Below, one piece after another: positions 492 to 58,948 of a DNA stretch of 64,000 bases. The notes under the pieces were generated by a model, which saw only the letters and a program-made list of their open reading frames with translations, did no database searches and was not told where the DNA came from. The stretch's first letter is position 1. Every line of letters starts with the position of its first letter. Position numbers and translations under genes: made by a program. Source of the DNA: Paramacrobiotus metropolitanus (lineage: Eukaryota; Tardigrada; Eutardigrada; Parachela; Macrobiotidae); the NCBI RefSeq assembly GCF_019649055.1, contig NW_026570490.1, forward strand, positions 16,059 through 80,058. The letters are read 5' to 3'.

Positions 492-1353
492 TTATCCGAG
501 ATACCAGGGAGCTTTGTCGCCGACTGTTTTCTCCCCAGTGTTGCGCGCCCTTGAATGTCGTACTAGATGGCTAACGTGAGCACTCCGCGATTCCAGGTGG
601 GCCGATCGTTTCCCCAGATACCAGGTCGGCTTTTCATTGGTGACCTTTGGTTTATCCGACGTACTGCGTTTGAGGCGCGGAGTATTGAGGGTGTCGAATA
701 GATCCGTAGCGGACCTTCCTGTAAACTTTCCATTAAGGTCACTTTGTGCTTCCCATCCGGCAGAGTTGTGCGTCATGGCAGAAGGACTGCTGATCCCTGA
801 TTTTGAGTTCTGGGAGTCGTTATCGTGAATTGCTTGCTGCAGATCAGACCGTTTGCCAAGGTACCATGTACCAGCTTGGTTAGGATTGCCGGTTCGCTTT
901 GCTTCCAACGGCGAGTTCGTTTTGGCAGTAAGCTCGCGTACTTGAGAAAGAGCTGTCAAAGTTAATTTGAAATTGTTAGAAAATTATACAGTATTAATAG
1001 AGATCAATAGCATATTTCACATACTCTGTACGTATTGTACATATCGGCACATGCAGATTTTAATGTTCCTATAATTATTCGTCATAGTACAGAAATTTTA
1101 TCCAATCAAATGCAAAGATTTTGCAGAAGACACATTTATGTTATATCAGTAGCACTACAGCGCCATTATTAATCTTATAACATTTGTATAATAAGTATAT
1201 AATTATAAAGTGAAACAAATTGGGTTACTTACTGGTAGAAGGGTTCCAGTATCTTTCGAGGAATAACTGACTTGTTCGACTGCAAATTACGCAGTTAAAA
1301 GCCGCGTAAAACATAAGGGAAATATTGAATATTTCGCGCACAGTCAAAGCCAT
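492..1353 (-). CDS. neuropeptide precursor with three WYL-amide peptides
   Basis: Two exons, 1233-1353 and 492-952, joined in phase 1, give 193 aa. The start is the only upstream in-frame ATG. It opens a hydrophobic signal peptide (MALTVREIFNISLMFYAAF, then NCVIC) with likely cleavage near residue 24. The rest is a typical prohormone. After a KR site comes TGNPNQAGTWYL followed by GKR. After RLKR comes STSDKPKVTNEKPTWYL followed by GKR. The C terminus is NTGEKTVGDKAPWYLG and then stop. The glycine before each dibasic site, or at the terminus, is the known amidation signal, so three peptides ending in WYL-amide are predicted. Spacer sequence between them is not conserved. I do not recognise the peptide family. 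A diverged EFLGamide-type (protostome TRH-like) precursor is possible because the final L-G-K-R is shared, but that is speculation. It should act as a secreted signal from neurons or endocrine cells. Confidence 0.82.
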
Positions 1354-8842: not shown

Positions 8843-9018
8843 TCGTACCAGTGACAGCATGTGAAATAGCAAGAGGAGAGGGAGAGGAGAAAGAACAGTC
8901 TCGTTGGTTACGCGCACCCATCGATCGGGTGCGCGCACTCACACACATACACACTCGGATCGCATATCCCTGTGACCCCTTTTACGCAGCATCACACCAC
9001 TAACCCAATCGATTCATC

Positions 9019-12000
9019 ATGCTGCAGATGTACGGTCAGAGTCGTAATACCGGCGGTGGGGGAGGCGGCGTCAGCTCCGGCTTCTCTAATCCCGGACCAC
9101 TTCCTGCCGCATCATCGTCGGCTACGACAACAGGCGGCAGCGGTGGAGGCGGCGGGAGTAGTGGTGGCATGCAGGGCATGGCAGGCTACAAGGTTATACG
9201 CGGCGGGCTACCTGGATTTAATGTCAGATCCACACACCGCGGTCAGTCGCCTACACGCGCTCGCGGCCAAGAGCGGGATCGCGAGCGGGATCGCGATCGA
9301 ATGTATCAGCAAAACTACTCATCCGGCGCATCTGGTCTCGAGCGGGAGCGCGGGGAGCGGGACGGGCGGGCGGAACGTGAGCCGCGCCATCGTGATCGCA
9401 ATGCCTTATCGACACCTGCATCGGCCCGTGAGTCGCCCATTACGCATGGCGGCGGTGCGGCCAGTGCCGCGGCACGCCGCTCACGCTCCGGCGCCAATAG
9501 CCCACTGATGTATCGCAATCAGAACGAGGTGCTGGAATCCTATCCCAGTCGGTACAATGTGGCCGAACAGCAGCAGCAGTCCTACTTCTCCGATTCCGCT
9601 GCCATGGGCCACATGTCCACCCTACCCAAACAGTCGCGCCAGTCCAGCCCGGCACGACGCGGCCAGCTGAACCGGGCACGGAGTTTAACACGCGACGAAT
9701 CACTGGACCGGGAACTTGCTCAACGTGCACAGCGCAATCTCCGCGATCGCTCATTGGATCGAGAGTATTTTAATTATCAGATGGCCAATCAGAACTCCTA
9801 TGCCACCTACGATCCACGGCGGGAGGCGCGCGCACGTTTACGGATTGATTCCGATATGCCGTATAAAAATCACCTACTGGATGGTCAGCATCCCGGTTTA
9901 TATGACGATATGGATACCGGTTATAATGCCTACCAGAATTCCATGCCGCATAATATTTCGCACAATAACCTGGGCGCCTACAGTAATCCCATGGTCCGGA
10001 CCAATCTCAGTATGCCCAGCGCGGCGACGATGCAGGCAGCGGATGCGGCGCTGGCCAGTAATTATGTGAATTCCCTGAGTATGAGCAATATGGCCGTCAA
10101 TCCGGCCCAATTACGGACCATGCCGCAGATGGTCACCACGGTGCTGCCGGCACCGCAGATGACCACCGCCCAGGCGGCCACGACGGCGGTCACGCCCACC
10201 ACGACCAGCAATGTGGTCAACACCAGCGTGGATCCCCTGCTGACACTGAAAACCCAGCTGCTGGAATTACATAAAATCAATCAGCAGTTACGTCAGGATA
10301 TGGAGACAGCCTCGCAGAAATTACAGTCAAGTATGAGCAGTATTAAGACCTTCTGGAGTCCCGAGTTAAAGAAGGAGCGCGCACTGCGCAAGGAGGAAAT
10401 TGCCAAATTTGCCCTCATTCAAGAGCAACTCAGACTTGCTAATTTGGAAAATCAAGTAAGTGCGAAAAAAATTTCCCTTAACCGGCAAGGCGGGGCACCG
10501 AGCGGGTAATCGCGTATTTATAATCCATTATCGGGCCATAATTATCCTGATATATTGACAATACTAATTTACGGTGTGATTCGGCATGCTGTGTGTAGTA
10601 ATTTGTTCAGTGTGTCGGCACAACATCAGGCAATCATAACATAAATATAGCTCTGTGCTCGACGGCGGAATAACGGCATGCAACCCATATAATCTCCATT
10701 ATGGCCGGGATTGCCGGCTAACATCGGGTTAAGGAGCGCGCAAATGCAAAAGCACGTTTTACGCCGGAAATGTGCCTTGAATGTACGCAATGGCTGGTTG
10801 CGACGGAAATGTTTAGGTGATCTTATGCATACACAACAAGCCCCTCGTTCTTTGATCGAGGGATTTGACTAACGCTATATCCCCCCTTTTTGCGCTATAG
10901 AATCGTAACTAATGCCGAAAGGAAATTTTGTTTCACATGCAGTGCAGCAGCGGTAATGCGAGAGCGACACAGCGCGGCTAAAGAGAAAACAACCTTTTAG
11001 TTTCCCTCTCAGGGGACGTTTGTTCCCATTATAATGTCAGCCCTAGCAGGCATCTGGGAACCGTACAAGGAGGATGGAGGGTCTTTTCATTTTGCGTCGC
11101 TACATACTTACACCAGTGCATTTTGCCCAAGAAGTGTGTGGTTTAGCTTGCATGATGCGCTGCATTAACGAAAACCGGATGCAGCCGGGATAATGTATAA
11201 TACTTTATTTTTGCGTAACGACCACGGCGACGGCATTATTATCGGGCAGTGTATATTGGCTAGGATTTATGTTGCTCCTAGTTAAGGAATCGATTAATTC
11301 TCAACCAAAGACCGGAACATGTGAATTCATCGGTTTAGGGAAAGCACAGTATGTACTGCATATATACCGTAAGACTTGCACGCCGGTTACGTATGCATAG
11401 CGGCGTTAAAATTTCTGACAACTTGAAATGAAATGGAAGCGAAACAGTCAGTGATATTAGGTCTTTTCCATCATGGGCACTGTAGACATCCAGATAAAAG
11501 GGGAGAGCAGTTGGGATGATGTGTGCCAGTTGTGCAGGGCAATCTATCATTCTCATCAAGCGCTGCATCTCCAACTGGGATCATCGCCTTTGTCAGAAAC
11601 CGCTATTATATGTGAATAATGACGTAACATATAGCCCATATACGGGAAATCGCCAGATTTCAACCCTGATTTCCCTCTTTCAAAATAAATGTATTTCAAT
11701 ACACATTAGTGATAATTATTTGAGATTGGGGTGCAAATTTAACATAAACCAAAGCGCAGTTCAGTTTTTTGGTAGCTTGTAATAAGCTTTAGTGTTTTTC
11801 GGCAGCCCAAATTTTTTGTGATTACACTGATTTGTGAATTTGACTCTTTCTCACAAATTCGAATGTTATAAATTAAAAATTCTCAAAAATATCTTCTTAA
11901 AATTACGAGGTTCGATCCAGACGGTGAATGACGCAAAGTTTCGAATTTTCTGGGCATTATAGACTTGGATGTTGCATATGTAATATTAAGCAAATATGTG

Positions 12001-21000: not shown

Positions 21001-24000
21001 GCAGAAATGCATTTGCACAGCGCGGCCGGCACGTTCCCTGTTCGGCGCATGCTGGGCAGTATGGGCACGTACAGACTATCGACTGAATCAACATAGGTTA
21101 TATAACACTCTGCACCCGCCAAGTGGCCCGAGTTCGGGTAGCCAATGATACGAGACACTCCATTTCCGTTATGTAAAGTGTGTGTGTGTGTCGCGCTGGC
21201 TACTGCAATGATCGATCAGAAAAAATTAATCGATTTTTTGTCTCTTTATTTGCCCTGGCTGTGGCGCTACAGAAAACGCTGGATATGCTACAAAAGACCA
21301 ATACCGATCTCAATGCCAGCCTGACACGGAAAGATGACGATATTCGCACTCTGGAGTCCACGGTCTACGACCTGCGCAGTCAAGTCAATAATCTCCGCTC
21401 ACAACTACATCGCTCCCAGGAGACCGCTTCGTACCCGGATGCTGCAGCCGGTTATAAAGCGCAGGGTGAGTTGGCGGAACTGCGCCAGAAAGTCTTCACT
21501 CTGGAGCAGCAGTGTGAATTCCACAAGAAGGAGCGCAACAATACCCAGAGCGAGAATGACCGGCTGCGGCAGAAGATTCTGTCGTTGGAGCAGTCCCTGC
21601 AGCAGACCGAGGGCGAATCGGACCGGCTGCGCTCGCGCATCACCAGCGTGGAGCAGATGTTCGAGCGCACTCAGGCGCAGGATCAACAGTCCCAGGCGCA
21701 GATGCAGCTGTTTAAGGAGCAGAGTGCCGTCGCGGCGGCGTCCCCGGCAAGTAAGGCGGAGGAGAACCGCCTACGGGCGCAGGTCGAGGAACTGCAGTCG
21801 CGTCTCAAGAACCAGATGGATGAGGACCAGAACCGGATATTCGAGTTACAGGTATGATAACTATGAAGTATTGATCAGCTGGGTTGTCGTGACCCAACAA
21901 GTTAGCCACGTCATATGTGGATTTTGTCATGCTTGCCAAAAACTCAATGCCTCATTACTTACTACGTCGTACGATTGAATACATCATTAGAATTTTCTCG
22001 ATTCACTTGCCAATCGGGATCGTTTAAAATTACTTATTCAACATTACTAATGACACTGGATACGCAAATGCAAAATAAATTTTATGTTTAAGTGCGAAAC
22101 CAGTGGTGCAACGGTTGTGCATGACCTTTAGAATGACCACTGTCCAGCAAATGGTTAATGGGTAACCTTTGAAGTATCTACTAACTTTGTACAAGCAGAA
22201 TTATATTTTTACAGTTTATGAACGCGATAAAAGACGCAGACTGCTTAAAATTAAAAACAAAACGGTTGTGACAGCTGGTGTTAATTGTAGGAAGAGGTAG
22301 GCAAAGTGAGGATGGAGAACGAGCGCCTACAACAAAAACTGCGTAATCTTCAACAGCAACTCGATGCGCTGAAAGAGGAGAAAGCCATCATCGAGCGCAA
22401 CACCGAGCGCACAGCGCAAGACCACAGTCAAGTCCGTATCGAATCGGAACGCCTGCGACAAAAGGTCGTGGTCTTCGAACAGCAGATTGAAACCCTCCGC
22501 AAAGAGAGCGAAAAGTACCATGAGCGCTGCCGCCTCGTGGAGCAGCAGCTGGAGACAGCCAAACGCGAGCAAGTCCAAGCGGTAACCGAAACCGAACGCT
22601 GCAAGCAGCGGATGACGCAGCTAGAACAGCAACTGGCGGAAGCCCGTTCCCAAGCTAACCAGATAACGCGGGAATACGAGGCCGCCAAGCAGCGCTACGC
22701 GTCGCTGGAGCAGCAGATCGCCAATCTAAAGATTCAGATCTCCGACACCCAGAAGGAGACGGAATACTGGCGAAAGCAGAGCGAAGAGCTGGAGAATCAG
22801 TTGCGCAATACCAAGCAGCAGACGACCGCCAGTTCGCAGGAGACGGAAAATTACCGCAGTCGGGTCACCGCTCTCGAACAACAACTGCAACAAGCCCGCG
22901 AGCGCACGATTGGATTGGAGACCGAGATGGAATCCTATCGAGAATACTGCACCAAACTGGAAGAACAGATGCAACAAGTGCAGGACGAGGCCGAACAGCT
23001 GGCGCGGGATGGGGATATTCTCAGGCAGAAGTGTGCCAGTCTGGAGAAACAAGCCCAACAGAACCATAATGACCGCGGCTCCGCCCAGGCGGAAACCGAA
23101 CGGGTGAGTGGAATTCCCAGAATAGTACACAGGTTTTCAGAATATTATACCGTAATAATTACCACGTTCCACTGGACCGTAAAAGCGTGAAATTTCGGTA
23201 CGAGAAGTGTAAGTGCGGCAAATAACACTACTCAGTATGCACTATGCAGTCAGTAACTAACTTTATATGTGATCAGTATCGGTAACGGTTCACAATCAAT
23301 CCCAGAAAATCTTTTTTAATCAAAACTTTACAAAACTAGGAATTTACGTATTTCTTGTGGGTATAAAAGCTTAGAAAAATTTGGATAGCAGTTCATAGTA
23401 GCGGACAACAAACTTATGACTCTATTTTTTGGTGGTCTTATTACAGCTTGTGTAGTTTGTGCAAAAGGTCACTGACCAATCACTATTTCAGTTAAATAAG
23501 CGAATGCTGCAGCTGGAACAGCAGTTAGCCTCCACCACCAAAGAACGCGATCAAGCGGCCCGTGAAGCCGAATCCCTACGGAAGATCTGCTCGCAGCAGG
23601 ATGAGCAGCTCAACCGTACCCGCCAAGAGCAGGACCAGTCCGGATCGGAGGCCAACCGATTGTTTACATTGCTCAAAGAGGCCGAGGAGGAGAAGATGGC
23701 CAAAGACCAACAGATCAGCGCACTGCGCCAGGAACTGCAGCAGCTGCAGAGTCAAGCCGAGCAACTGCGGCGTGAACACGATGCCGATAAACGCCGCAGC
23801 CAAGAGCTGACGGAGCAACTGAAACGGCAGGCACAACAGCAGTCCGCCGCGCAGATGCAAGGCACGGAGGAAATTGCCACCCGGATGCGCGAGAAGGATG
23901 CACAGGTTGCTCAACTGGAAAGGGCGCTCGAGCAGAGTAGCTCCCTTACCATGGAACGCGAGATGATTGTAGCTCAACAACTGGAAAGGCTCCAAGTTGC

Positions 24001-27843: not shown

Positions 27844-30800
27844 TCAACAGGTTGCGGCACATCGGCTCATTGGCGAATTATAGTGTCTATAAGCTTTTTG
27901 GAAATGAAAAATAGTGTTGCCGGCTTTCAACTGGAAGGGTCCCAAGGAAGATTCGCGTAGAAACAGATCTTTTGGCTGATGAGCACAGAAACTGGCCCGC
28001 TTGGCCGATTTGCGATTCCAGCGTGCATCTTGCCCGGCACAGCGCAGCTTCTGCCAAGTTTTGATCTCTTTCCAAATTCCCATAGAATACAATCCATACA
28101 CATACGGATCAACGACGCAGCTAAACACTCCAAAAATAAACAGAATCTCTTGCAGCAAAGGATTGATTTCAGCGGCCGAGTCACGTGCCACAAAAAACCA
28201 TATGTGGATGATTTGGTAGGGCGACCAGCAGGCAATGAATATCAGGACGACCAGTGCTACAAAGTAAGTCTTTATTGATTTCCGAATTATTAAAGTAAAT
28301 TTTTATTACATGCTGACTAAAATGTTAATGCATGATGGTACTATTTACACTCCCGTTACACCTGCAGTAATCGAATTTCAGCCGCATGCACTTATTTGCA
28401 GTCGCATTCACTGCGTTATGTTTACCGGTCATCCGTAGAGTGCGTGATTTAGCTTTGGATAAAAAATCTCCATGAGGATTAATCAAAATTTGCTTGAAAT
28501 CCGCCGAATTGCGATCCCGGGTTAAATCTTGTGACACGGGTGTTGTGCAAGAAAGCCGTTCGCTTGATCCAGCTGTAAGAAGAAATTAATTTATAGGCGC
28601 TGTTAGTAATAGTGGTTTCTTATTCTCTTTCATAACAACAACATCGGAATACGAAGCACTATTAGTTCCTTAAATCGGCGTTTAGGGACGCTGCTAGAAA
28701 TGACGGTTGCTGAGCTGGAAAATACAGCAAAATACTGAAGCAACGGAAAAACGGAATAAAATTAATAATGCTACCTTTCTTGCGAACATTTGTATGCAAT
28801 CGAGTACTAACAATAAATGTCCGGCATCTACGGTAAATACTCTTGGTGATAACACAGTACTCTGTTTTGTTCGTTTTGCATTTAGCGTCAACGGGCTCCG
28901 TACTTTGTACTTGTATCTACTTCGGCACATTTACAATGCAGTGTTAGTGTTATAGCTAATTAAAAACGGGGATGTTTTGCTGGCATTTTAAATGATATCC
29001 GGAATCAAAAACTCCGGTTACTTTAATTTAGGATTCTGATTCTGACCCTCCCATATTCGCTTATAGGAGTTTTCCGTATGCAAATTGATCATTCGAAAAT
29101 TCACGCAGCGAGCATGTGTCATCTGATAAACATCGGCATGAAAGATTCATTGTGGAGACTATTCTGGATGAAAATGGGTGGTTCCTTAATGTGCATTTCC
29201 AAGGACAAACTGCGCAGCGATCGGCAGATGTATACATATCCGTTTACAAATACACTGAGCACTGTTTTCGGATCCTTGCGTAAAACTGTTCGGACGAACA
29301 TGAACTGCGCATATCAAGAGTATAGTCTAACTATGCAAAATGACGTAAGCCGGGCGAAAAGTTCAAAATAGGATGGCGACCTATTTTAACTGCAATGACA
29401 AAGTACATCTTTTTTCCTTGTCACAAAGTGAGAATTGATATACACTATTTTTCTTACATTTATAAACTCACAAAAGGAACAAACTGTTCAGCTGGAGACA
29501 CGAACGACTACTATCTATTTCTGAATAATTTGAAATACTAGACATGATATAAGTAGTTTACTATTTTGTAGAAATGTACAATATAATAATATTATGTACA
29601 ATATTAATATCTGTAGGCAGGCGGATATTTCCTGTTATACCAGCGTCAATATTGATTCCCGTGTGCGGCGTGTGGGTGCAGTATATTACGGCGGGAATCC
29701 GATTTGCTGCTGACGTTCATAGTTACACAGGATACCACAAATATTTTCACGCGGCAGTTGGTAGTCCGCGCCATGTGATACCTTAACAGTCAATCACTGC
29801 ATAAAATAAGCAAATAATGTGGAGAGCGGCGTATGACCCTCGAAAGATACTTCAAAAAAATTGCATCCCTTCCGTGCGATTGCAGACAGGCGCAACCTGC
29901 TGCCGGCTAATAATGTTTTGATACAATTACATCCGTATTTGGTCTAAAATTTTTGCCGGTAATTTTTTTCTACTGTATGTTTTGCTTGGATTTTACGTGC
30001 ACCATTTGAAAATATCTGGCGTCCCGGAGAAAACCGGGACTGATGAAAAATGGTTGTAATCGAACGAAATGGGAAAACATCCCAGTTGCAAATGACTGTA
30101 TGGCACTAATGACACTTACCAATCTGGCGGAGAAAAAAGTGCAGTAGCTAACCTAGTTGCTCCTATAGTGTCCGACGGACGACAATTTGCAATTCGATCG
30201 CTCGCAATCATTATTACAGAGATTTAGGAAACGTCGCTCCTGATGAGTTTGCTAACGATAACGCGTCATGTCAAGCGCAATCCGACATTTAACTTCTTAT
30301 ACAGTTTATGGTTGACTCCGTACGTGTTTGTTCTAGCATTAATAAGCACTGTGCACGCTATACGTGAGCGTGCGCTAATAGCATTAATCCGTATTGATAG
30401 GAAGTACAGCATCGCACCAAATTACAGTTCTGTTGACGAATATATTTTTAAAGAAGGATGGGAATCGATTCGTCTGCGTAACTTTAACATTTGACATTGT
30501 TGGAAGGAATTCACGTCATGTTTAAAAGGGTGCCGTCAAACTAAGCTACGCCGCATTCATAGATGACCGTTCCAAAATAACCAAATACAACAGACGTCTA
30601 ACATTAATATTTTTGATAATTTTTATATACTTGCACGCGATACTAGTTTTGCTAAAATTTATATTTATAGTGTCAGTGAACTGTCAGTGAAATTGATTAT
30701 TTTTAAGACGAGCATGCAACATGTTTAATTAATTTAATTAATAGAACGATGAATATAGGAAACAAGGTGTGTCTCCGTTGCAGTGTCGCATATACATTGT

Positions 30801-33555
30801 ACGAAGGTATACACAATTCGGTAAAATGTGCAATATACCCGTATTTATGCAGCAGCCATACACAAATTAGTTAGCACGTATGAATATGCACTAACCATTG
30901 CAGTTGTGCGTTGGAACGGGATTGTCCGTTTGCTGTCGTGACTGGCGGGAATACTGGGAGATGCGTAGCCATATTCCCAAATAGCACACGATAATGGTCA
31001 CCAGGGGCAAGCCATACATGAGAATGGTGATCAGTAATCCGTAGGCCAGCTCCGCCGTGCGGGTTTGGAAGGCATCAAAGGTCACGCACTGTTGGTACCA
31101 GGAGTGTATGGGATGGGTTTTCAGGCTCCACACGGACAACTGTAAAGTAATGGTGGAAATGAGAAAAAATATCTTAATGCTCATCTGGAGTCATAAAAGA
31201 AAATTGCTTTCCAAGTTGAAAATGAGGTTATTTTTCCCTCGATGGTATAATGATATGGCTGATGGGCACTTACTTGCGGACTGGCGCACACCACACTCAG
31301 TATCCAGGAGAGAAAGACCATGGCTTTGGCCCGTATGGTGGCCTTGCGGGCCGTCGACAGTGGATCCCATACGGACATAAAACGATCCACGCTGATGGCG
31401 ATCAGGAGAAAAGCTATACGTGAGACCAGCGGTAATGTGAATTTTTACGGCGCTCACAAACTGCGAGATGAGACGTTGGATGAAATTACCATACCGTTGA
31501 GATACAATCCCACTACGCGGAGTCCAGCAAGGAACCGGCACGCTGTGTCACCGGCACGCCACTGCACGGTAGTTTTCCACGCAATCTGTGAAAGGGCACA
31601 AAATCATTAAATGTTCGCTTAAGTAGAAAATATAATTATTAATAAAATACTGTTGTACATAAGCATATACTGAAAATGGTCTAGATGATGAAATTTTAAT
31701 TAAACACAAAGCGCAGTAAGAGATGCAGTTTAATTAAGCAGGGCGCGCACAACAGTCACACATAGCTAGGAAATAATTAAGCCCAATATAAAGATATCGC
31801 TAAATCTTTGTATAACGCGCGTCTCATGATCTGTGGAATTTCTTGTAACGCGCAAAGAGCGTTAATTCGCACACGTAGTTTCCTTAAAGAAATTAATTAT
31901 CGAACGGAACAAGTACTTTAACAGCCACTCGAAACCTAAGGATCAGCGGCAACGTAATACGATCGGAAGTATCAAGCTGTGCACGTTTCGGCTGTCAGGC
32001 GATGTTGAATTACAAAACCTGTCTACAGGTAACCTTTGAATGGCCTGATTTCGGGACTACAGCTCCACACGTGAACTTCGTATGGTCATTCATGACAACC
32101 CATCTAATGTGAAAATATGACAGGTAGCTGTAATTTCAGGCTGGCTTTTAGGCGCAACCTGAACGCAAAATGTAAAAATGCTCGTTGTTCCATGCTTTGT
32201 TGAAATGCCGGCATGCCGCATGCCGATAATCAAGATCCTGAAGGAAGAAACTGGCATAAATTAATAATTACCAGACTCGAATACAATAACGGTGCGTTTT
32301 ATAATTTTAAGGATAGGTTTCCAGATGATTAAAACTGCACAATATGTAATCAAAATCTGCTCCAGATTGAGAATCTCATGTACAAAGGTAGCGAAACCAG
32401 TAATCTGATCACGGACCTGCCGGTGTAAGGTTGCAATTACCGGGCTTGTGACGTAATGCAACCCTTACTAATCATTCGTTCTTTTATTTGTTGTTATTTT
32501 ACCTTTAATTTTCTGATGGCCTCTTATTGATTAAACTACTTCTTAATTTTTCCAGATGTAAACAACATTGTGAGGTGTCTTAACTGCATTTTGACCTCAA
32601 TGTAAATAACTATTACGATGCCGGGATCTTTTTTATTAGCGAGATCACGAATGGTATCAACGTAAGCGCTAAACGTGCAATTAGGGGCACCGCATGGTCA
32701 CACCGGAAGCGACTATCAGGATACGGTGAAAGATCGACGAGCATCTGCTCCAGTGTTCATCCCCCAAAAAACACATATACTGCCGCCTATTGATGAGACT
32801 GAAACGTTTCTAATTATATACCCGTCGCATTCCTTTATATAAGCTATCCCGTTTGTAACAGGAGCCGTATAGAATATCGCCGACATTTGTTTACATTGAC
32901 TTATCACGCACAGAGAGTTATGGGCGGCAAAATATTATTAGGCCGTTCAATCAATGTTAAGTTGTTAACGTCCCATTACAGGAAGCTCTTACCGCCGATA
33001 ATCAGAAAAGCAAAGAAAACTACACTATACTTTGTATCATAACTGAGAAAAATCCTGTAACATAATATTATTGCTTACACTTCTGTCGTTCTACATTTAC
33101 GTCATTTTATGCGTCAAACAAAAAAAATTGTAACTCCATAAATAAAAAAACATGCTAAAAATGGGTAAAAAAGTACAGGCATATTATTTTTTCCGGCATG
33201 CAGTCAACAGACGTTTCAAAATTCTTATTACCGTATAGGATTAATGCTTTTGGTTAAGTACCTGTAGTGGCATTTCAATGACCGTCACGAGGATATCGGC
33301 AACACATAAATGCAGCAACATAAAATGTACACGGCTGCGATTCTTTCTTCCATATAACTTCCAGAATACCACACCATTCCCCAGCAGCGATATCCATATT
33401 AAATTGGCATAGGTGACGATGACCATGACATTCTTCACACCGAATCGCATATTGGGATCACCGGGCTCTTCATGGGTGTAGTTGTAATTAACCTTCGGCA
33501 CATCGTCCCTAATTAGGACATGGACAATTTGTTCCATTGTAGTTGGCGCCGGCAT
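27844..33555 (-). CDS. peptide GPCR of the AKH/corazonin/GnRH receptor class
   Basis: Six exons: 33262-33555, 31495-31585, 31274-31413, 30896-31139, 28426-28572, 27844-28256. The phases agree and the total is 442 aa. The N terminus carries an N-Y-T glycosylation site. TM1 has LLGNGVV and TM2 has LHLCVADIL followed by MPLQ. The first outer loop has the VQWRAGDTAC cysteine block. TM3 ends LIAISVDRFMSVWDPLS, with DRF in place of DRY. TM4 ends CASPQ. The second outer loop has the QQCVTFDAF cysteine, which pairs with TM3. The third inner loop ends AKSRTLRMT. TM6 has ACWSPYQIIHIWFF, and TM7 has the class-typical VVDPYVYGLYS. These features match receptors for adipokinetic hormone, corazonin, ACP and GnRH, which couple mainly to Gq. 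I cannot separate these subtypes by eye. It is unlikely to be an opsin or amine receptor. Confidence 0.9.
28573..30895 (-). other. GPCR intron 4
   Basis: A 2.3-kb intron inside the third intracellular loop. No exon is supported. A small GC-rich hairpin (gtcccgg, 6-base loop, ccgggac) lies at 30021-30040. Confidence 0.8.
31586..33261 (-). other. GPCR intron 1
   Basis: A 1.7-kb intron between TM2 and the first extracellular loop, with a gtactt donor and a ttcacag acceptor. Nothing else is recognised in it. Confidence 0.8.
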
Positions 33556-36500
33556 GACTGCGACACGATAACTGATAACCGGCGCGCGCGTGTGTGTCAA
33601 ACGGAATTTTCTAGCGTCCCTGCGTCCAACGGTGAAACCCCACAAAGTACCACATCCGGTAGGTAGGATCAGGGCTTATTCGGAAAGGAGCATGTGATGA
33701 AGACTGACGGATTCTTATAAGGCGACATATAGAGCAACAGGGGCGCCCGGTGCCACACCGGTCCGGTAAGCTGATTTAATCAAATGATTTCTTGGGGCGC
33801 ATATATAGCCAATGCACAAATCCCCTCACATTTATATATGCGGGCGCGGTACAGCGTAGACGGGACCGGCAAGAAGCTGTACGGGAATTGACTTATGGAA
33901 TGGGATTATAATTATTACGCAGTACTCCAGCGGACGGGGCTAAATGAAGCCAAACGGATCGATTTTACGATGTAACACGGCAGTGTATACGGTATATGAT
34001 TTTGACGATTACGCCGCGTACGACGCATTCCCGCTGTACCGGATACCCAGCAGCACTGAGTGTGGACTAAGTGTTTTTTCTGGATAATGACCAGTTGAGA
34101 TGATATTGTAAATTTTCGCAGAATCACATTAAACGGACGTTAAGCTGGGCAATCTTAAAAATAATCACAGCACTTTACTGCACAGTATATATATCTACTC
34201 GACGGCGATAATGATGATGAAGGCCGCAATGATGAGCGGTAAATACTTGACGAGCTGCAATTCCGATGGACATTAATATGATTACCGCAAGATCGCGCCG
34301 GACTAAGATGACAAGAGCATTTCCAGGGCGGCTGATAAATAAGCAAAAATAGTCATAATCAAATGTGAAATACGCCGCTGCATCTCGTGACACAGAAGCC
34401 GCCTAATGATTTGCTTGAAAAATGCTATTCATAATGTCATTTCGAAGCCTTAATAAAACAGATAATCCATTAAGATTAAACTGAGGAGAAGTGTAACCTT
34501 ACGGCCTACAGTTGTATTTATTGTTATTTTAAGTAAATATTTCATGCACACAAATAACAATACGAAATAATCTTACAATTAGAAGGTTTTTGAATGTTGG
34601 TTGCTTCGTCGACCAATCATTTTGTAGCTCCGTGCTAATTTAATAACTGCACTGAAGTACGTCAAAAAGCAGACAACTGCAACTCAATATTTCTCGCGTT
34701 AGCGAAAGGTATACCACCGGGAACGTTTGGAACCAAACTGTTATGTTTTATAACGTATTTTCATATTGTACGAGTACAATACAACCTATGCGAAATCAGC
34801 GGCTTTTGCATGCGCGTACAGTGTACAGCGGCTGAAATCCTTCTTAACACCAAAGATGCACAAGAGTTACACCCAGATGATACCACAGCATAGTACATAT
34901 GCAGTGTTCGCTATTCTTAGAGAGTTGTTTGTCGCTAGAAGAAATGTTGGTTTGGAATCTGTCAGACAAAATGAAATATAACTCTTGCAACCGCAACGTG
35001 CGCATTCATCTATGCGAGTAAAAGACTGGTGTTGTCAGTGCCAAAATTGTTCGCAACCAGAATGTCTACGCATCTTCCGCATATACCACTGCAGTATTAT
35101 TTTTGCTGCGTAGATCGAATAAGTCTTGAAACTCACTTGGAAAACGCCAATTATGTTATTTTTGAAAACAGCGTGCGCGCAAATTAGGTTTCGATGCAAC
35201 GCCAGGAAATCGTTATGAAAACGTACAAATTATTTGGAAATAATATCTGTTTGCAAAAAAAACCTTAAATTAATACTTCTAATGTACAAATTTCAGAACT
35301 CTGTCCATTATGAACTCTTAAATGTATAGGTATGTACTGGCAAATTTTGGCTTAAAATTAATTTCTGCTGGTTTTCCTTATATGCAAACAATAATCACTA
35401 TGCTTATGTTTCTATATTGTAAATGCCGGTACTATGGTGCTAAAGAACACGCAAGCCGGCATATTATAATATGTGCTTAAAGGTTATAATTATCAAGTCG
35501 AGCGAAGCATTTATCGGGTCATACAATAATCGGAATTGAAAACCGGCATCCCGGTTTGTCAACCCAACAAAAGTCGTCATCGTGATGCATACAGAACCGG
35601 AAAGAAACGCTCCAGGTGCAGGAAACGTTAACCTTGAAAACCCTTTTGGTACAACATGACTACACGGTTTTTTCAGCAACCTTCACTACAGTCCGCGTTC
35701 CTTTGTAGCCTGGAAAGTCTCGAGGGTCAACATCATTCCTGACCAATTATTTTCTTGGCACGTCAAAATAAGTACGAAATACCCTTTTGAAATGAATATC
35801 GTCTAGTCGGAGCACTTTCTAAGACGCTTGCTGCAATCGGTTTCAATTATGCCGACGAGGTTAAATGTAAATCAAATGTAATTAACCGTGACGAAGCTCG
35901 TCGCCTGTTTACGCCCAGCACGCCGAAATGTTGAATATTTTGCTGGGAAACATTACATAGTTTGGGCAACGGCAGCCCGGATGATAGAACTTTAATGTTA
36001 CATGAAACTGCCGTCCCTCGCGACCTTTGGCGAATTCCGTTCTGCTGATGACTGATGCAGCTAATTACCTTCATCTTAAAGGAAGGAAACATGTGGAGCG
36101 TCTTTTTAGCAAATGAATACCCTTATATGTTATTCGACCGCAGTACTTGTACGGTGCTACAAAAATAATTCTGAAACAGTGTATAAACAGTGTATACTAG
36201 AAAATAAAACTGTAAGTGTATAATGGAAAGTATTTATTTTGTATGTCATGCGATATCGACAACTAAGAGAGGCAGCCAAAAAATTTGAAAGCTGCAGTCT
36301 TCCTCCTTGCATGTTCCTAATTCCAGCGTATAATTCTCGTAAAGATTAGTTTTTCACAGAAGCAGCTTAATCCCGGATTTTAATATAAAATCCAGCTAAT
36401 TCTATTTCAGCGAATTCGCTTTCGCGAGCACTATACGTCGGATGATTTTTGAACATCCGATCAGCTTTCGGTGACCTGCTCACGAAACTGCTGATACAAA

Positions 36501-40700: not shown

Positions 40701-42977
40701 TTCAGCTTCTTGAAGGCTTTAAATAAGTACCGTACAAAGTTCATTTGAAATTTGGTGAAGATGCATTTCGCTAAACCTTACTTCTCTCTACTCGTACTAA
40801 AACTGGTGAACTTCTACTTTATTAGCCGTTATGTTAAGAATTCGTTTTTCACCAAATATGGTTGCTTTACTCAGTAACTTTATAATCGGCATGTCAATTT
40901 TATTATTTATTCCAATGCCTTTCCAACATACCTTCAAAATACGAATCCCCGCGGGCAAAGTAAACATATTCAAAAAGGCAGAACGCTGTGGCCTTTGGTT
41001 TATTTGGGACCACGGGTTCTGGCAGTTCCACCCCGTTTTTTAAGGGAGTGGGTTCCGGAGGTTCAACACGTGCCACCGTACTAAAGCCGTCTTTGGTGAT
41101 CTTGACCACTTCTCCCGGGTAGACTTCCCGAACAAGTTTGCAATGTGGCACATTTTTAAAACAGCAGGACTCCGATGCCACAATCCATGCATCAGCTTGA
41201 TATGGTCCTGCAGTTAGAATCATTAATTAAAGCGCGCGTTATTGCCTTGCCTCGTATAACAACTAGGAAAAAATTTGTAGTTCCATAGCTAAATTCGTAG
41301 TTCCATAACTACTCGTACTTACCACTGCTTGGGTTATTTTCGGAAGATATTTTTCCCAGAACTAGTGGACGATTTCCGAAGCAGTCTCGTACCGCATATA
41401 TAGCGTCCCCGTTGAGAAACAGGAAGGAGTACGCCAACGGAAACATGCGCATCAATTCGGCCAAACGTCGCGGCCAGTCTGGTGGTGACATTTTCTCCGA
41501 AGGTGACTACAAAGTACGGACACTGGTCAAACTTCACAACCAGTCCCAACGCGTGATTAAGCAAGATGTTGCCACCGGCTAGAGCAGTATGTCCCGCTTA
41601 AAATTGGTAAATTTGAGATTAATTTGATTACTCAAGACATGTTTTTACAAAGTACAGTACGTAGTAGCATATAACGTTCAAAAGCCAAAGGTTAATAACT
41701 ACTCCAAGAAAAAGCGAGATCATTGGTAGAAGTAGTCAATACCATCATTGCTCGGCCAGAATCAGACGGACTGTCGTCCGAATTGTTTGATCCGCGCCGG
41801 GAATTGCGCGAACCAAACAAAGAATCCTTGTGCAGCAGCAGTAGAGCTCGCAGCAAAAGTTCGGTATCGGACTCGCTGGAGAATGCCGTGCCATGGAGAA
41901 ACAGCTGCAGAACACACAAACCGTTACATATCCCAATACATCAAGTACTCACAGTCCACTTCGGAAAAAACAAGTTGCACAAACTTCATGACGCAGCGCT
42001 TCGGCATTAACAATCTCGCCGTTATGGGCAATGGCCATGTGTCCGTGGGAGCCTTCCAGGGTCAGCGGCTGACAGTTGACCAGATGGGACCGACCGGCGG
42101 TGGAGTAGCGGTTGTGGCCGATGCCCAGATTGCCTTCCAGATGGCGTACATCCTCGTCGCGGTACACCGCGCTCACCAAGCCCATACCGCGATGGCATTT
42201 CAGCGGATCGGTGCCGGAGCCAGTGGCCACCACGACGCCCGAGCTTTCCTGTCCGCTAAAGGAAAACAATATTTCAAAAACATAAAAAGATGAAAAAAAT
42301 AAAACTTTAATACATTCAACGTTAATACATTATGTATCCTATTATACTAATAAACATTAATTTGTTAAAACTTTGGACTAACTAACATCCTGCCAATTTT
42401 TAATTTATTTGATAGAAAATTGTTAAGTGCAGCCCACTTCCAGATAGTAGAAACTCATGCAAAGTACTGCCGCAGGAGTGTTGCACTGTACGGTATATAC
42501 GTAGATATGCGTTAAAAAATTTCCCTGATTATCGCCTTAAAAATACAAAATCACGATTTTAGAAGCCTAGATTTATCATCATATATAAAGGGTGTTCAAG
42601 TTATTATTAAGTTTTCTTACTATCATTATTTCTTAGTTGCTAACAGAATACTGCGAATATCCATAATGATGAAATTATCATGAGCATTTGTGCTGAAAAC
42701 CCTAGTGTCAAGTATTAAACCTTGTGCTGGACAACATAAGAAATAAGAAAATCGGTTGCTAAATGAACTGAATTTTTAATTTACGGACTTACTGCTAACA
42801 AATGTAAGTTTCTTACCGATGCTGCAGCCCCACTAGACCATTGATGATTGTTTCAGCTACATGGACCTTCAATTTGACACACTCTCCTGTGGCAGGCCAC
42901 GGTCCTGCTGCAACGCACCCAAACACAGCGCATTCTTCGCGCAGTCCAGATTCGTAGTCAGGATCACGGACACTCAT
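37772..42977 (-). CDS. PPAT: amidophosphoribosyltransferase (purine synthesis, first step)
   Basis: Eight exons: 42817-42977, 41953-42255, 41743-41875, 41323-41506, 40932-41207, 39449-39576, 39161-39382, 37772-38065. All phases agree and give 566 aa. The enzyme makes phosphoribosylamine from PRPP and glutamine in the cytosol. A 15-residue propeptide precedes the nucleophile Cys16 (REE then CAVFGC). The glutaminase domain has [25 protein letters not shown] and CFGNRPL. The PRTase domain has the PRPP loop [13 protein letters not shown] and [12 protein letters not shown]. All four iron-sulfur ligands of the human enzyme are present: in [18 protein letters not shown] and the terminal CSAC. The exon 3/4 region holds a Ser/Arg/Asp-rich insertion of about 30 residues that the human protein lacks. 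The frame is fully intact. Confidence 0.96.
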
Positions 42978-51871: not shown

Positions 51872-53158
51872 TCAACTTTTAGGACTCTCCGATGCGGAGT
51901 CGGTTAAGTATTTGTCCAGCTTCGCTTTAAGCATTCTGGCATAGAATCTTCTATATTCACGGGGTAAATTTTCCAACTGTTTTAGCGCTCGATCCAGACC
52001 CTGAGATGCACGGAAGTATGGCAGTAATTCTTTGTTCCCATACCTAAAAATGCGACCACTGTCAATACGCAGATTACCAACTGCAGAATGCTATACATAA
52101 AAACAAAGGTGCATATTTCTTAAAATTACTAATATATTTTAGTGTGAATTTGTCAATCGGCATTTGCCTTTAAAAATAATTTAGAAATCACGAGATTATT
52201 AAACTGTTGCCAGCATAGATAGTAAATTCTCGATAATAAGTAATAATTGTCATGTCACAAATATAAGGTAACGGTGAAATCAACGCAAATACTGCATGCC
52301 ATTAAAAGCAGAAAAATTGTAAAAAGGAATTTGGGAATTGTCTTACGTGTCTTTGCTATCGTACAGTTCTTTTGGCAGATTATGCCAAAAGACGTTAACA
52401 GCGATGCTGAACTCCTCCGCGACCATGTAGTGCATCCAGAAGGCAGGAATGAACAGCATATCGCCTTCTTCCAGGGTGCATACCCACTTGGTCGCATTTC
52501 GAAACTTGGGAAATCTGTCCAAATCCACGTTCTCCGCGTCGAAGATGAGTGATTTGTCGCCCTGCATGTACAGATGATCAAAATCCTCAGGATCAAAAAG
52601 AACTGCGCGTTTTCGTCCGCGGATCTGTATGAGCACATTGTCGAGCACATCATAATGCAACCACAATCCCAAATTGGCCGAACCGCATCGCAACACACAG
52701 GAAAACACGGTTTCATGCTCCAGAAAATCCGGGAGCACAAAGTCCTGTGCTAATTTAGGAAAATCGCGACGGAAATCACTGGGCACGTTCCTGGCATCGT
52801 CCGCCAGTGCGCGGTAGTAGTAGAATTTATTTTGTGCGTCGCCTTCGCTGGATGTGAGAGCAGCGTCGATAAAAGCTCCAAACGGCATCACGCGGTAAAC
52901 AAAATTTTTGTCCAGGAATCGCAGACGATTACTCGATGATTCGTGCACACTCACAGGTTTATCACGTCCAACTTGTTGCGCCAAATACGCTGCAGTCCAC
53001 TTTTCCGCGCATGCGCCAATGGGAATATCACGGAGAACGGCTGGTTGCCGCTGCGCCTGGATATCGAAGAATTCAGTTTTCGTAGGAGCATCATAAACGG
53101 GAATGAGAGTAGGAACGGATGAAGTTGTAAGTAACTCTTCCTTACAGCTAAGAGTCAT
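51872..53158 (-). CDS. TYW5: tRNA wybutosine-synthesizing protein 5 (JmjC hydroxylase)
   Basis: Two exons, 52347-53158 and 51872-52043, give 327 aa; human TYW5 is 315. The enzyme is an Fe(II) and 2-oxoglutarate dependent oxygenase that hydroxylates wybutosine at position 37 of tRNA-Phe. The JmjC fold shows LGLWLHYDVLDNVLIQIRG with the metal ligands His168 and Asp170. A third ligand is at His243 in PAFWMHYMVAEEFSIAVNVF. The second exon encodes the family-typical tail, beginning TYGNKELLPYFRASQ and continuing ALKQLENLPREYRRFYAR. This tail decides the acceptor after cgcatttttag, since two upstream AGs give the wrong frame. The start is the first ATG of the long frame. Confidence 0.95.
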
Positions 53159-54134
53159 TCTGTTCAAAATCTCTAATAATGGAGAAGTCGGTTTCCAATA
53201 ATTAAAACAGCGGGTGTGTTAAATATTAATTGATTATAAATTAGCCATTTAGCTCTAATCTAGTAATCTAGTTCGGATATAAAATTATCATTTGTCCAAA
53301 GTTTATAACCACAGAAAGAGGACATTTTTTAATCAAACTTGAAACTTGTATATCTTTGAAACATGAAAGTGAACCATTAATTTTCTGAGCTGGTCGTGAA
53401 TACTAGAGTAGTACTAGTACTGTACCATGACTGTACTGCAAGTCTGCAACGGTGTCGTTTTCTGACGTCACAGCGGGCTTCCGGTGTATATCTATATCTG
53501 GTACCTGCATAACGTAGAGTAATGCTTATCCACAGTGCCTGCACTCGTGTCCGGCTTATCTAACAAAAACTGACTAGGTTTGCCGAAGTCTATCTGTAAA
53601 TACATACGATCGCACACTAGTGTAACGAGTCCATATTCCCGAAAAGTCCCATGACGCATTTCGTAAAGTTGAAGCATTACATAATGGCAACTTTATCTTA
53701 CACAAGAAAGTTTGTCGATTCCATGAACCAACACATAACTGCCACATAATTATACTCTAGTAAAATAAGCTGAAATCATAAATTCACCGTCCAAATCGTC
53801 AACAAATAAAAGAATATTAAACAAAGAGACGGTAACTGTGAACTGTGTAGCAGCTCACGGATAAAATATAACAACCGGTTGTTAAAATCTTCGGGAAACA
53901 CCACAAGACTTATGTACAACTAAAATTGTAAAAACAGTTCCCAGTAAAACGATAGATGGATCAGCGCATCACCAGCCACGGCACATCTGGACGTACAGAA
54001 TCAAATATTATATGGTAATCTTAGACGAGTAATAAAAACAAATTAAAACTATCACTACCAAATTTATAAAATTCTTTTGGCGACGCGGCTCTTTTGAACT
54101 TAGTGAGCTCCATGCGACAACCTTTTCACCTGCA
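53159..54134. other. intergenic region between TYW5 and KLF
   Basis: AT-rich sequence with no supportable exon. It should contain the TYW5 promoter at its left end and the KLF 3' UTR at its right end. A palindromic agtagtactagtactgt stretch near 53407 is the only structure noted. Confidence 0.5.
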
Positions 54135-55870
<1,736 letters not shown>

Positions 55871-57498: not shown

Positions 57499-58948
57499 TT
57501 ACTTTTGAGTTTCCAAATGCTTGTACTTTTCTTTTAAAAGTGGTAGCAGTTCTTTACGTTTGCCAGGGGAAGTGTTAAAGTACAACTGCTGATCTTCGGA
57601 ATACTTTTCCACCACCGGAATCACATCCCGGAAGCGACTATCCCGCCAGTGAAAATTAAACAATTCAATGGCAGTTTGTGCGTCTGTATCTGATCGTATC
57701 ACGTTAACAGGTGGACGACGGGGCAAATCTCTGCATAAAGTTGTTTTCAAAATAATGCAGCCGCGAATTGCGAACCAGCCTCCGAATTTTGGATGCATGC
57801 ATACTCCCATCAACTTCTGTAATGCAATAATAAAAAAACATCACCTTTTCAACATTCGCAACTGCACACGCCTTGCTGTCAAAAATCGGGCGCGGCGCAT
57901 GCGCCAGAACAATAACCGCCAAGAGCAAACTATCACTAACTTAAAAATTGCAAACAAGAAGCCCACAAAATATCGCCACCACTGTGGTCTTTTAATGATT
58001 GTTGCAGTTATTACCTTTTGATTTTTCGATGCGCTGGGATAATGTTTGGGTTGGTACAAATATGCAGCACCGGCCACATGTGCAGCAGTCTGGGCAAGAA
58101 TTTTTGGCCGTCGATTTGGATGGAGTTCAAAATCATGAATGATGTCCATATCCAAATGATCAAGTCCCTGCAAAAATTTATTTCAATCCTTTTCCTTAAA
58201 AACAAAATCAAATTGTCACACAAAACTGAGTGCCTGAGGCTACACTGTAATTATTTCCATTTAGCTCATTTTAGAGTAAGCCCAGACACAGCAAAAAAAA
58301 CCAATGCCGAACATAATTATTTGGATTCCCGCAAGCCAATAGCGCAAATACAATGGCATAACATGATAATACATCATATGACAATTACTACAAAATGGGT
58401 CATAATCGTTCACCTTCCGAAGTCGGCTAAAGCACTTCATAACACACAGATCAATGGGATCCCGTAGATCTTCCAGATCGTTGTTTAAGATGAAGGGAAT
58501 GAATGTGCGCTCGAACATGGAAGGCGTGCTGATAACCAGAACCGCAACCGTATCTTTGTCATACTGCAAACAAAACGGGTGCTCCACAACATTATTATAC
58601 CATCCTAAAATAAGAAGTCAAAATAAAATCTTTGCAACTGGTACAGTCGTCGACGAATACGAGAATCAAAATAATTATTAATCATGTCAATGTAGTTAAG
58701 ATAAAAATAACAAAAATTAATTTGTCCTAGAGACCTAGACTCATATCCATACCTACTAGGTACGGATAGATTTCAAATCCTTGCGGCGCTAAAATACGAC
58801 TGATCTGGATGAGAATGCTGCGGGTTCCTGAACTGATAACGGACGGAGATTCTGGTTCGGATATGGGAGATGCTGATAACGGGAGGATCGACTGCCCGGC
58901 TGGTCTAATCGAAGGTGCCAAGACCAGCTGATCGTGCGTCAGTGTCAT
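57499..58948 (-). CDS. MMACHC: cobalamin trafficking protein CblC
   Basis: Four exons: 58753-58948, 58414-58604, 58015-58167, 57499-57816. They give 285 aa; human MMACHC is 282. The protein binds imported cobalamin, removes its upper ligand (decyanation or glutathione-dependent dealkylation) and passes it to methionine synthase and methylmalonyl-CoA mutase. Diagnostic segments match the human protein closely: [50 protein letters not shown] followed by [18 protein letters not shown] and [13 protein letters not shown]. The N terminus before residue 45 is longer and Ser/Pro-rich. The frame is intact. The start codon is 690 bases from that of AKAP17A on the opposite strand. Confidence 0.96.

What the first reader, a model, noticed from the sequence alone, without database searches (positions are those of the whole stretch)
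492..1353. Neuropeptide precursor with an unfamiliar WYL-amide signature
Three peptides ending in TWYL, TWYL and PWYL, each followed by glycine and a dibasic site or stop, lie behind a signal peptide in a clean two-exon gene. Conservation is confined to the W-Y-L-G ends, which is the pattern expected of bioactive peptides. No established amidated family that I know ends in WYL-amide. Sequence and processing sites are seen directly; the peptide products are inferred from known prohormone rules. A link to EFLGamide precursors is only a suggestion.
Basis: partly seen in the sequence, partly recalled or inferred. Interest (0 to 1): 0.75.

Follow-up and report, generated by a model that had tools for sequence, protein, structure and literature searches.

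The report
Tardigrade WYL-amide neuropeptide precursor family
This water-bear gene looks like a real precursor of small signalling peptides with an unusual ending, it has about ten apparent relatives elsewhere in the same genome, and that genome also carries an unusually large set of receptors of the thyrotropin-releasing-hormone type that might be what these peptides act on.

Summary
A minus-strand two-exon gene (1353-1233, 280-bp phase-1 intron, 952-492) encodes 193 aa with a weakly hydrophobic, signal-like start and three peptides ending TWYL-G-KR, TWYL-G-KR and PWYL-G-stop. By assembly statistics the genome is almost certainly the tardigrade Paramacrobiotus metropolitanus. The gene is not isolated: 11 candidate genes hold 22 WYLG motifs, one of them on the same contig just outside the window, one with 7 motifs. 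WYLGKR has 18 hits (15 in these genes) against 4 for the reversed pattern; matched WFLGKR has 9 against 8. All six Leu, both Tyr and all four Gly codons occur, so the peptide is what is kept. No WYL-amide turned up in the open papers searched. The same genome has 33 TRH-receptor-type loci (TRHR best solved match for 5 of 5 tested); 32 places match at E<1e-12, against 6 for a tachykinin-receptor control. The pocket is TRHR-like but altered. Boldest reading: WYL-amides are the tardigrade TRH/EFLamide-type ligands, co-expanded with their receptors; the pairing is inferred, not shown. Whether Koziol 2018 already lists the family could not be checked.

The parts
1233..1353 (-). exon 1 coding part: start codon at 1353, signal-like N-terminus, ends in phase 1
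   Evidence: Translation and splice model
1279..1353 (-). putative signal peptide (about 25 aa, MALTVREIFNISLMFYAAFNCVICS); cleavage point approximate, no predictor run
   Evidence: Hydropathy scan (best 11-residue mean 1.94, lowest of the nine modelled family members)
953..1232 (-). phase-1 intron, 280 bp, GTAAGTAA...TTTGACAG
492..952 (-). exon 2: rest of prohormone, stop codon at 494-492
855..893 (-). peptide 1, TGNPNQAGTWYLG (Gly = amide donor), between KR and KR
612..665 (-). peptide 2, STSDKPKVTNEKPTWYLG, between LKR and KR
495..542 (-). peptide 3, NTGEKTVGDKAPWYLG, after SRAR and directly before the stop

Best explanation
The locus is a real prohormone gene of a tardigrade and one member of a multigene set (11 candidate genes found) whose products end in WYL-amide. 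Shown from sequence: two exons in frame, signal-like first exon, dibasic sites, glycine amide donors, recurrence of the motif in genes with otherwise unalignable flanks and freely varied codons. Inferred from prohormone rules: the precursor is secreted, cut by convertases at KR/RR and at SRAR, trimmed, and amidated by PAM to give three WYL-amides that act on G-protein-coupled receptors. The likeliest receptors (own probability about 0.35) are the TRH-receptor-type GPCRs, of which 33 loci were read in this genome. The confidence below is for the gene being a genuine WYL-amide prohormone of a multigene set; the receptor pairing is scored in the section on the most novel reading.
For: Exact gene model. 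WYLGKR 18 hits against 4 reversed, 18 of 18 coding Leu although the pattern allowed Phe, 15 of 18 in precursor-like frames. The WYLG-plus-Arg/Ser pattern gives 23 hits against 11; 4 of them are in precursor-like frames (2 in C40, 2 in C124). In the 11 genes, 22 WYLG motifs, followed by KR 15, RR 4, RK 1, K-stop 1, stop 1; Leu codons CTG 7, CTT 4, CTC 3, TTA 3, CTA 3, TTG 2; Tyr TAT 14, TAC 8; Gly GGC 11, GGG 5, GGA 5, GGT 1. Signal-like exon plus phase-1 donor modelled for 9 of 11 genes: window gene, L002, L003a, L004, L005, L007, L008, L015, L016. Three same-contig pairs (C270, C197, C124) fit local duplication.
Against: No transcript, peptide or cross-species data. The signal-like start of the window gene is weak. 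Phase-1 introns after signal peptides are common in secreted proteins (general knowledge), so that shared trait is weak; L015 also has a stronger phase-0 donor as an alternative. tblastn with the window exon 2 (E up to 0.001) and with L008 exon 2 (E up to 10) finds only the query, so common descent of the 11 genes rests on motif and layout. No first exon was found for L003b and that of L001 is uncertain. Pfam has no match above its cut-off for the 8 of 11 proteins tried; L001 has a sub-threshold adipokinetic-hormone match (16.6 bits, cut-off 22.9, E 0.011) that lies on one SWYLGKRS copy.
Confidence: 0.87

Rival explanations
1. The WYL-amides are real but act on another receptor family; the TRH-receptor-type expansion answers to a different ligand (for example ETH, or an EFLamide-like peptide that was not detected).
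For: ETH and its receptor are reported from tardigrades (PMC6660194, passages), and ETH receptors are, as I recall, close relatives of TRH receptors; no ETH receptor appears in the rows shown by the PDB searches, so those searches cannot separate the two. The TRH pocket is altered: Y181 is F in 25 of 33 and L in 5, Y192 is F in 32 of 33, Y282 is F in 20 of 33, R185 is R in only 12 of 33, Y106 is F in 4 of 4 and Q105 is N or S in 4 of 4 read. An EFLamide precursor with a changed motif would be missed, and 9 of its 18 hits were not read.
Against: W279 is kept in 31 of 33, N289 in 30 of 33, R283 in 33 of 33, Y310 in 26 of 32, and R306 is Lys in 31 of 33; insect ETH receptors, as I recall them, lack W279 and N289. 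An altered pocket is also what a changed ligand would predict.
Confidence: 0.5
2. The set consists of fast-evolving secreted peptides that are not neuropeptides (for example gland secretions or defence peptides) which happen to be amidated.
For: Same-contig pairs and strong divergence outside the motif.
Against: A short, strictly kept amidated C-terminus with variable N-termini and multi-copy precursors is the usual neuropeptide pattern; the three window peptides have no cysteine.
Confidence: 0.07
3. Chance open frame with coincidental WYLG-KR motifs.
For: Chance hits do occur: 4 reversed-pattern hits; the C2, C19 and C75 hits and five of the seven further hits read (L011-L014, L072) lie in frames that do not look like precursors.
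Against: Three motifs in one frame, each followed by a basic pair or a stop, a splice model that joins a signal-like exon in frame, and 10 similar candidate genes.
Confidence: 0.03
4. The precursor is a divergent orthologue of an established arthropod family such as EFLamide (or, less likely, HanSolin).
For: Amidated peptides ending in Leu-amide like EFLamide; mantis EFLamide has itself drifted to ELLamide (PMC11874938, passages).
Against: HanSolin has a GQPLRW-NH2 consensus in most polyneopteran taxa and lies C-terminally in its precursor (PMC7179676, passages). The EFL motif is absent here and the intron phase differs from the mantis exon.
Confidence: 0.25

Closest known systems
EFLamide / EFLGamide (protostome TRH-type peptides)
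   Same: Short amidated C-terminus, aromatic residue then Leu-amide (EFL versus WYL); TRH-type receptors present here in many copies
   Different: E-F replaced by W-Y; phase-1 instead of phase-2 intron before the peptide exon (mantis); ligand activity untested; many genes
Echinoderm TRH-type peptides (starfish pQWYT-amide)
   Same: W-Y directly before the last residue; multi-copy precursor with dibasic sites (PMC4772807, passages)
   Different: Starfish peptides are mostly uniform tetrapeptides with N-terminal Gln; WYL-amides have long variable N-termini and end in Leu
HanSolin
   Same: Amidated peptide with variable N-terminus and conserved C-terminus
   Different: Consensus GQPLRW-NH2 in most polyneopteran taxa (PMC7179676, passages)
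Novel candidate families of tardigrade neuropeptides in Koziol 2018 (Gen Comp Endocrinol 267:116; abstract recalled, paper not held)
   Same: Same phylum; might include this family
   Different: Could not be compared; its species, as recalled, are Hypsibius and Ramazzottius

Membership tests
Amidated neuropeptide prohormone (general kind) | N-terminal signal peptide | tested here: inconclusive
   Hydropathy scan only, value just above threshold; no dedicated predictor
Amidated neuropeptide prohormone (general kind) | Peptides bounded by basic cleavage sites with Gly amide donor | tested here: met
   3 of 3 in the window gene; 22 of 22 WYLG motifs counted in the 11 genes are followed by a basic residue or a stop
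Amidated neuropeptide prohormone (general kind) | Peptide found in neural tissue | not testable with these tools
   No peptidome or expression data
EFLamide / TRH-type ligand | C-terminal EFL-amide motif (protostomes) | tested here: not met
   Motif is WYL. Genome search for EFLGKR: 18 hits against 7 reversed, on 17 contigs without clusters; the 9 that code Leu were read, none precursor-like; the 9 that code Phe were not read
EFLamide / TRH-type ligand | Same intron phase as arthropod EFLamide last exon | tested here: not met
   Phase 1 here, phase 2 in mantises and German cockroach (PMC11874938, figure legend)
EFLamide / TRH-type ligand | TRH/EFLamide-type receptor present in the genome | tested here: met
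   33 loci, subject to the ETH-receptor caveat
EFLamide / TRH-type ligand | Activates a TRH-type receptor | not testable with these tools
   No assay
TRH-type receptor (for the 33 loci) | Closest solved receptor is TRHR | tested here: met
   5 of 5 loci tested (of 33): L029 133 bits against 48 for the next receptor, L040 77/35, L057 64 with no other match at 1e-6, L059 43/31, L035 58/36
TRH-type receptor (for the 33 loci) | TRH-contact residues of human TRHR (PMC9437008) | tested here: inconclusive
   Kept: W279 31/33, N289 30/33, Y310 26/32. Conservative: R306 to K 31/33. Changed: Y181 F 25/33, Y192 F 32/33, Y282 F 20/33, R185 R 12/33; Y106 F 4/4, Q105 N/S 4/4, with N110 kept 4/4
TRH-type receptor (for the 33 loci) | Separate from ETH receptors in a tree | not tested
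   No ETH receptor sequence at hand
HanSolin | C-terminal GQPLRW-amide consensus | tested here: not met

The most novel reading that the evidence does not exclude
WYL-amides are the tardigrade TRH/EFLamide-type ligands, and this lineage has co-expanded ligand (11 candidate genes) and receptor (33 loci read) into the largest TRH-type signalling repertoire I know of, a many-to-many peptide-receptor system in a minute nervous system, with a pocket re-shaped (Tyr to Phe at four contact positions, Arg306 to Lys) for an aromatic WYL-amide instead of TRH.
Probability: 0.35. Interest if true: 0.78.

Novelty: new variant of a known kind. Interest (0 to 1): 0.61.

Why it matters
If true it adds an amidated neuropeptide family whose C-terminus was not found in the papers searched, in a phylum whose neuroendocrine biology is little known, and makes a concrete test possible: do synthetic WYL-amides activate the TRH-receptor-type GPCRs? 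A yes would link vertebrate TRH, echinoderm QWYT-amide, arthropod EFLamide and tardigrade WYL-amide through one receptor family and would show a large co-expansion of peptide and receptor genes. Even without the receptor link, the set looks like a missing part of the tardigrade neuropeptide catalogue that tblastn and Pfam do not pick up.

Tried and rejected
Rejected: HanSolin (suspected from memory). Adipokinetic hormone: Pfam gives a sub-threshold match (16.6 bits, cut-off 22.9) to L001 residues 246-259, which are SWYLGKRSLTPTSN, so it sits on a WYL copy; I take it for a W...GKR resemblance, not membership, but did not test it further. tblastn with exon 2 and with L008 exon 2 found only the query, so the other genes were found by motif. 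WY[I/V/M]GKR hits on C48 are 7 identical pattern hits; 3 read, not precursors. Read and dropped as not precursor-like: L006, L009, L010, L011-L014, L072. Lipocalin search meant to recognise the phylum was not pursued; the SSU rRNA search failed twice. Ligand-receptor linkage (C40 about 94 kb, C4 about 174 kb, C3 about 412 kb apart, coordinates) was judged no better than chance by a rough estimate, with no test run. Tree (36 rows: 32 of the 33 receptors, human TRHR, TACR1, L064, L065; L058, L062 and L063 left out before building): the 32 and TRHR fall together apart from the three others, support only 85/91 and very long outgroup branches; human TRHR falls inside the group beside L029 (81/73), so the tree does not show that the expansion is tardigrade-specific.

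Full report
What is there. On the minus strand, 1353-1233 joined to 952-492 gives a 193-residue protein with stop: a moderately hydrophobic start, then TGNPNQAGTWYLG-KR, STSDKPKVTNEKPTWYLG-KR and NTGEKTVGDKAPWYLG-stop. The donor is GTAAGTAA, the intron 280 bp and phase 1. Of the four in-frame acceptors listed the one used, tttgacag, is equalled by one and beaten by one in pyrimidine count; it is the likeliest by context, not proven. Among the three copies only W-Y-L-G and a T or P before it are shared.

Whose genome. G000 has 169,799,020 bases in 533 contigs and contig C1 is 4,484,719 long. PMC8277472 (passages and table 1) gives 170,483,395 bp, 684 scaffolds, longest 4,484,941, accession BHEN01000001-684, for Paramacrobiotus sp. 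TYO; PMC11879619 (passages) cites BHEN00000000.1 as P. metropolitanus, and PMC11191345 (passages) gives 170 Mbp and a longest scaffold of 4.48 M for that species. I infer the same assembly without its short contigs and slightly trimmed. This rests on those numbers, not on a marker gene: the rRNA search failed.

A set of genes, not one gene. A degenerate pattern for WYLGKR has 18 matches and 4 for the reversed pattern. I read all 18: 15 lie in precursor-like frames, 3 (C2, C19, C75) do not. A pattern for WYLG followed by Arg/Ser-type codons has 23 matches against 11; I read the two in C40 and seven others: the two in C40 and the two in C124 are in precursor-like frames, five are not; the other 14 code Phe for Leu (9) or Ser for Arg (5) and were not read. 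Together: window gene (3 motifs), L002 on the same contig (4), L001 on C40 (7), L003 a and b on C197 (1 each), L004 on C61, L005 on C279, L007 on C3, L008 on C4, L015 and L016 on C124 (1 each): 11 candidate genes, 22 motifs. L002's start codon lies about 1.8 kb beyond the window's edge, 2.3 kb from this gene's stop (coordinates). Nine of 11 have a modelled signal-like exon with a phase-1 donor (for L015 a phase-0 donor is an alternative); L001 has a loose candidate and L003b none. L002 also has RYL-G-KR and L005 WRV-G-KR.

Why it is not chance. Controls of equal information content: WFLGKR 9 matches against 8 reversed; WY[I/V/M]GKR 12 against 5, of which 7 are identical hits on C48 (3 of the 7 read, and one other hit). 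All 18 WYLGKR hits code Leu though the pattern allowed Phe. The 22 motifs use all six Leu, both Tyr and all four Gly codons, so the amino acids, not the DNA, are kept. What follows is KR 15, RR 4, RK 1, K-stop 1, stop 1. Against it: whole-exon tblastn finds no relative, so shared descent is inferred from motif and layout.

How it probably works. By the established rules of prohormone processing the product is secreted, cut at KR/RR (and at SRAR before the third peptide), trimmed and amidated by PAM. Shown: sequence, sites, recurrence. Inferred: secretion, cleavage, amidation, signalling.

Which receptor. By my count of that list, 32 separate places have a match below 1e-12. I fetched 37 stretches; 33 are of TRH-receptor type by eye on the alignments, and 4 (L062-L065) were set aside as other GPCRs before counting; one further place (C145:26 kb) was not fetched. 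Five of the 33 were searched against the PDB and TRHR came first each time: L029 133 bits against 48 for the next receptor, L040 77/35, L057 64/none, L059 43/31, L035 58/36. The closest pair among them is 88% identical in DNA, so they are not obvious alleles of one another.

The pocket. TRH contacts in human TRHR are listed in PMC9437008 (passages). In the 33 loci: W279 kept in 31, N289 in 30, Y310 in 26 of 32 with letters, R283 in 33, C179 in 33; R306 is Lys in 31; but Y282 is Phe in 20 and Tyr in 13, Y192 Phe in 32, Y181 Phe in 25 and Leu in 5, R185 kept in 12 only. In the four receptors whose upstream exon was read, N110 is kept 4 of 4, Y106 is Phe 4 of 4 and Q105 is Asn 3, Ser 1. One row (L058) is poorly aligned in TM6-7 and is counted. 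So the pocket is recognisably TRHR-like but re-shaped, which suits a ligand other than TRH and neither proves nor excludes WYL-amide.

The case for and against pairing. For: many genes on both sides; WYL-amide, starfish pQWYT-amide (PMC4772807, passages) and EFLamide are alike in kind; no EFLamide precursor among the hits read (18 pattern hits against 7 control, unclustered; 9 read). Against: motif and intron phase differ from mantis EFLamide (PMC11874938, passages); ETH receptors, as I recall close relatives of TRH receptors, could not be separated for lack of a sequence, and tardigrades do have ETH and its receptor (PMC6660194, passages); several TRH contacts are changed; growth on both sides may be coincidence. 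I put the pairing at 0.35.

What is known. Searches for WYLamide spellings and for neuropeptide with WYLG found no paper in the open collection; a search for tardigrade with thyrotropin-releasing hormone and neuropeptide listed three papers, of which passages of two were seen and those passages do not describe tardigrade TRH-type signalling. Koziol 2018, the genome-wide survey of tardigrade neuropeptides, is not held; I recall from its abstract that it reports four novel candidate families, so this family may already be listed there for other species. A tardigrade neuropeptide mass-spectrometry workflow exists (PMC11879619, passages), which makes the peptide test practical.

Noticed in passing
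window 27847-33675, minus strand: Three open frames with Pfam 7tm_1 matches, all under the family's cut-off (29.6, 27.8 and 17.3 bits against 30.5), probably exons of one rhodopsin-type GPCR; by eye it resembles an AKH/GnRH-type receptor, not tested.
   Followed up: partly
window 9004-10506 and 22291-23187, plus strand: Active-zone ELKS/CAST-type (Bruchpilot-like) coiled-coil gene: Pfam Cast at 3.4e-20 in the first frame.
   Followed up: partly
window 41952-42329, minus strand: Glutamine amidotransferase exon (Pfam GATase_6); by eye part of a PPAT-like gene that extends to about 37775.
   Followed up: partly
window 52346-53218 minus; 58264-58617 minus; 54557-55078 minus: Cupin/JmjC protein, MMACHC family exon, and C2H2 zinc-finger exon.
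   Followed up: partly
L002 3994-4842 minus (contig C270, outside the window): Neighbouring WYL-amide precursor with 4 WYLG motifs plus an RYL-G-KR variant.
   Followed up: yes
L005 2923-3447, L008 2589-2885, L001 3256-4161: Three members share a CxxC- or CxxxC-containing stretch just after the intron (for example CKGCKPEVQALIKKLSAY and CNSPCDPDVLALKLSAY), without a Pfam match there.
   Followed up: no
L066 (contig C48:115500-121000): Repeated short frame ...GNRFPAFWYIGKRF; 7 identical pattern hits over about 46 kb of C48 look like a local repeat.
   Followed up: partly
L059 and L061: Two divergent TRH-receptor-type loci that lack the basic residue at TRHR position 306 and the Asn at 289.
   Followed up: partly
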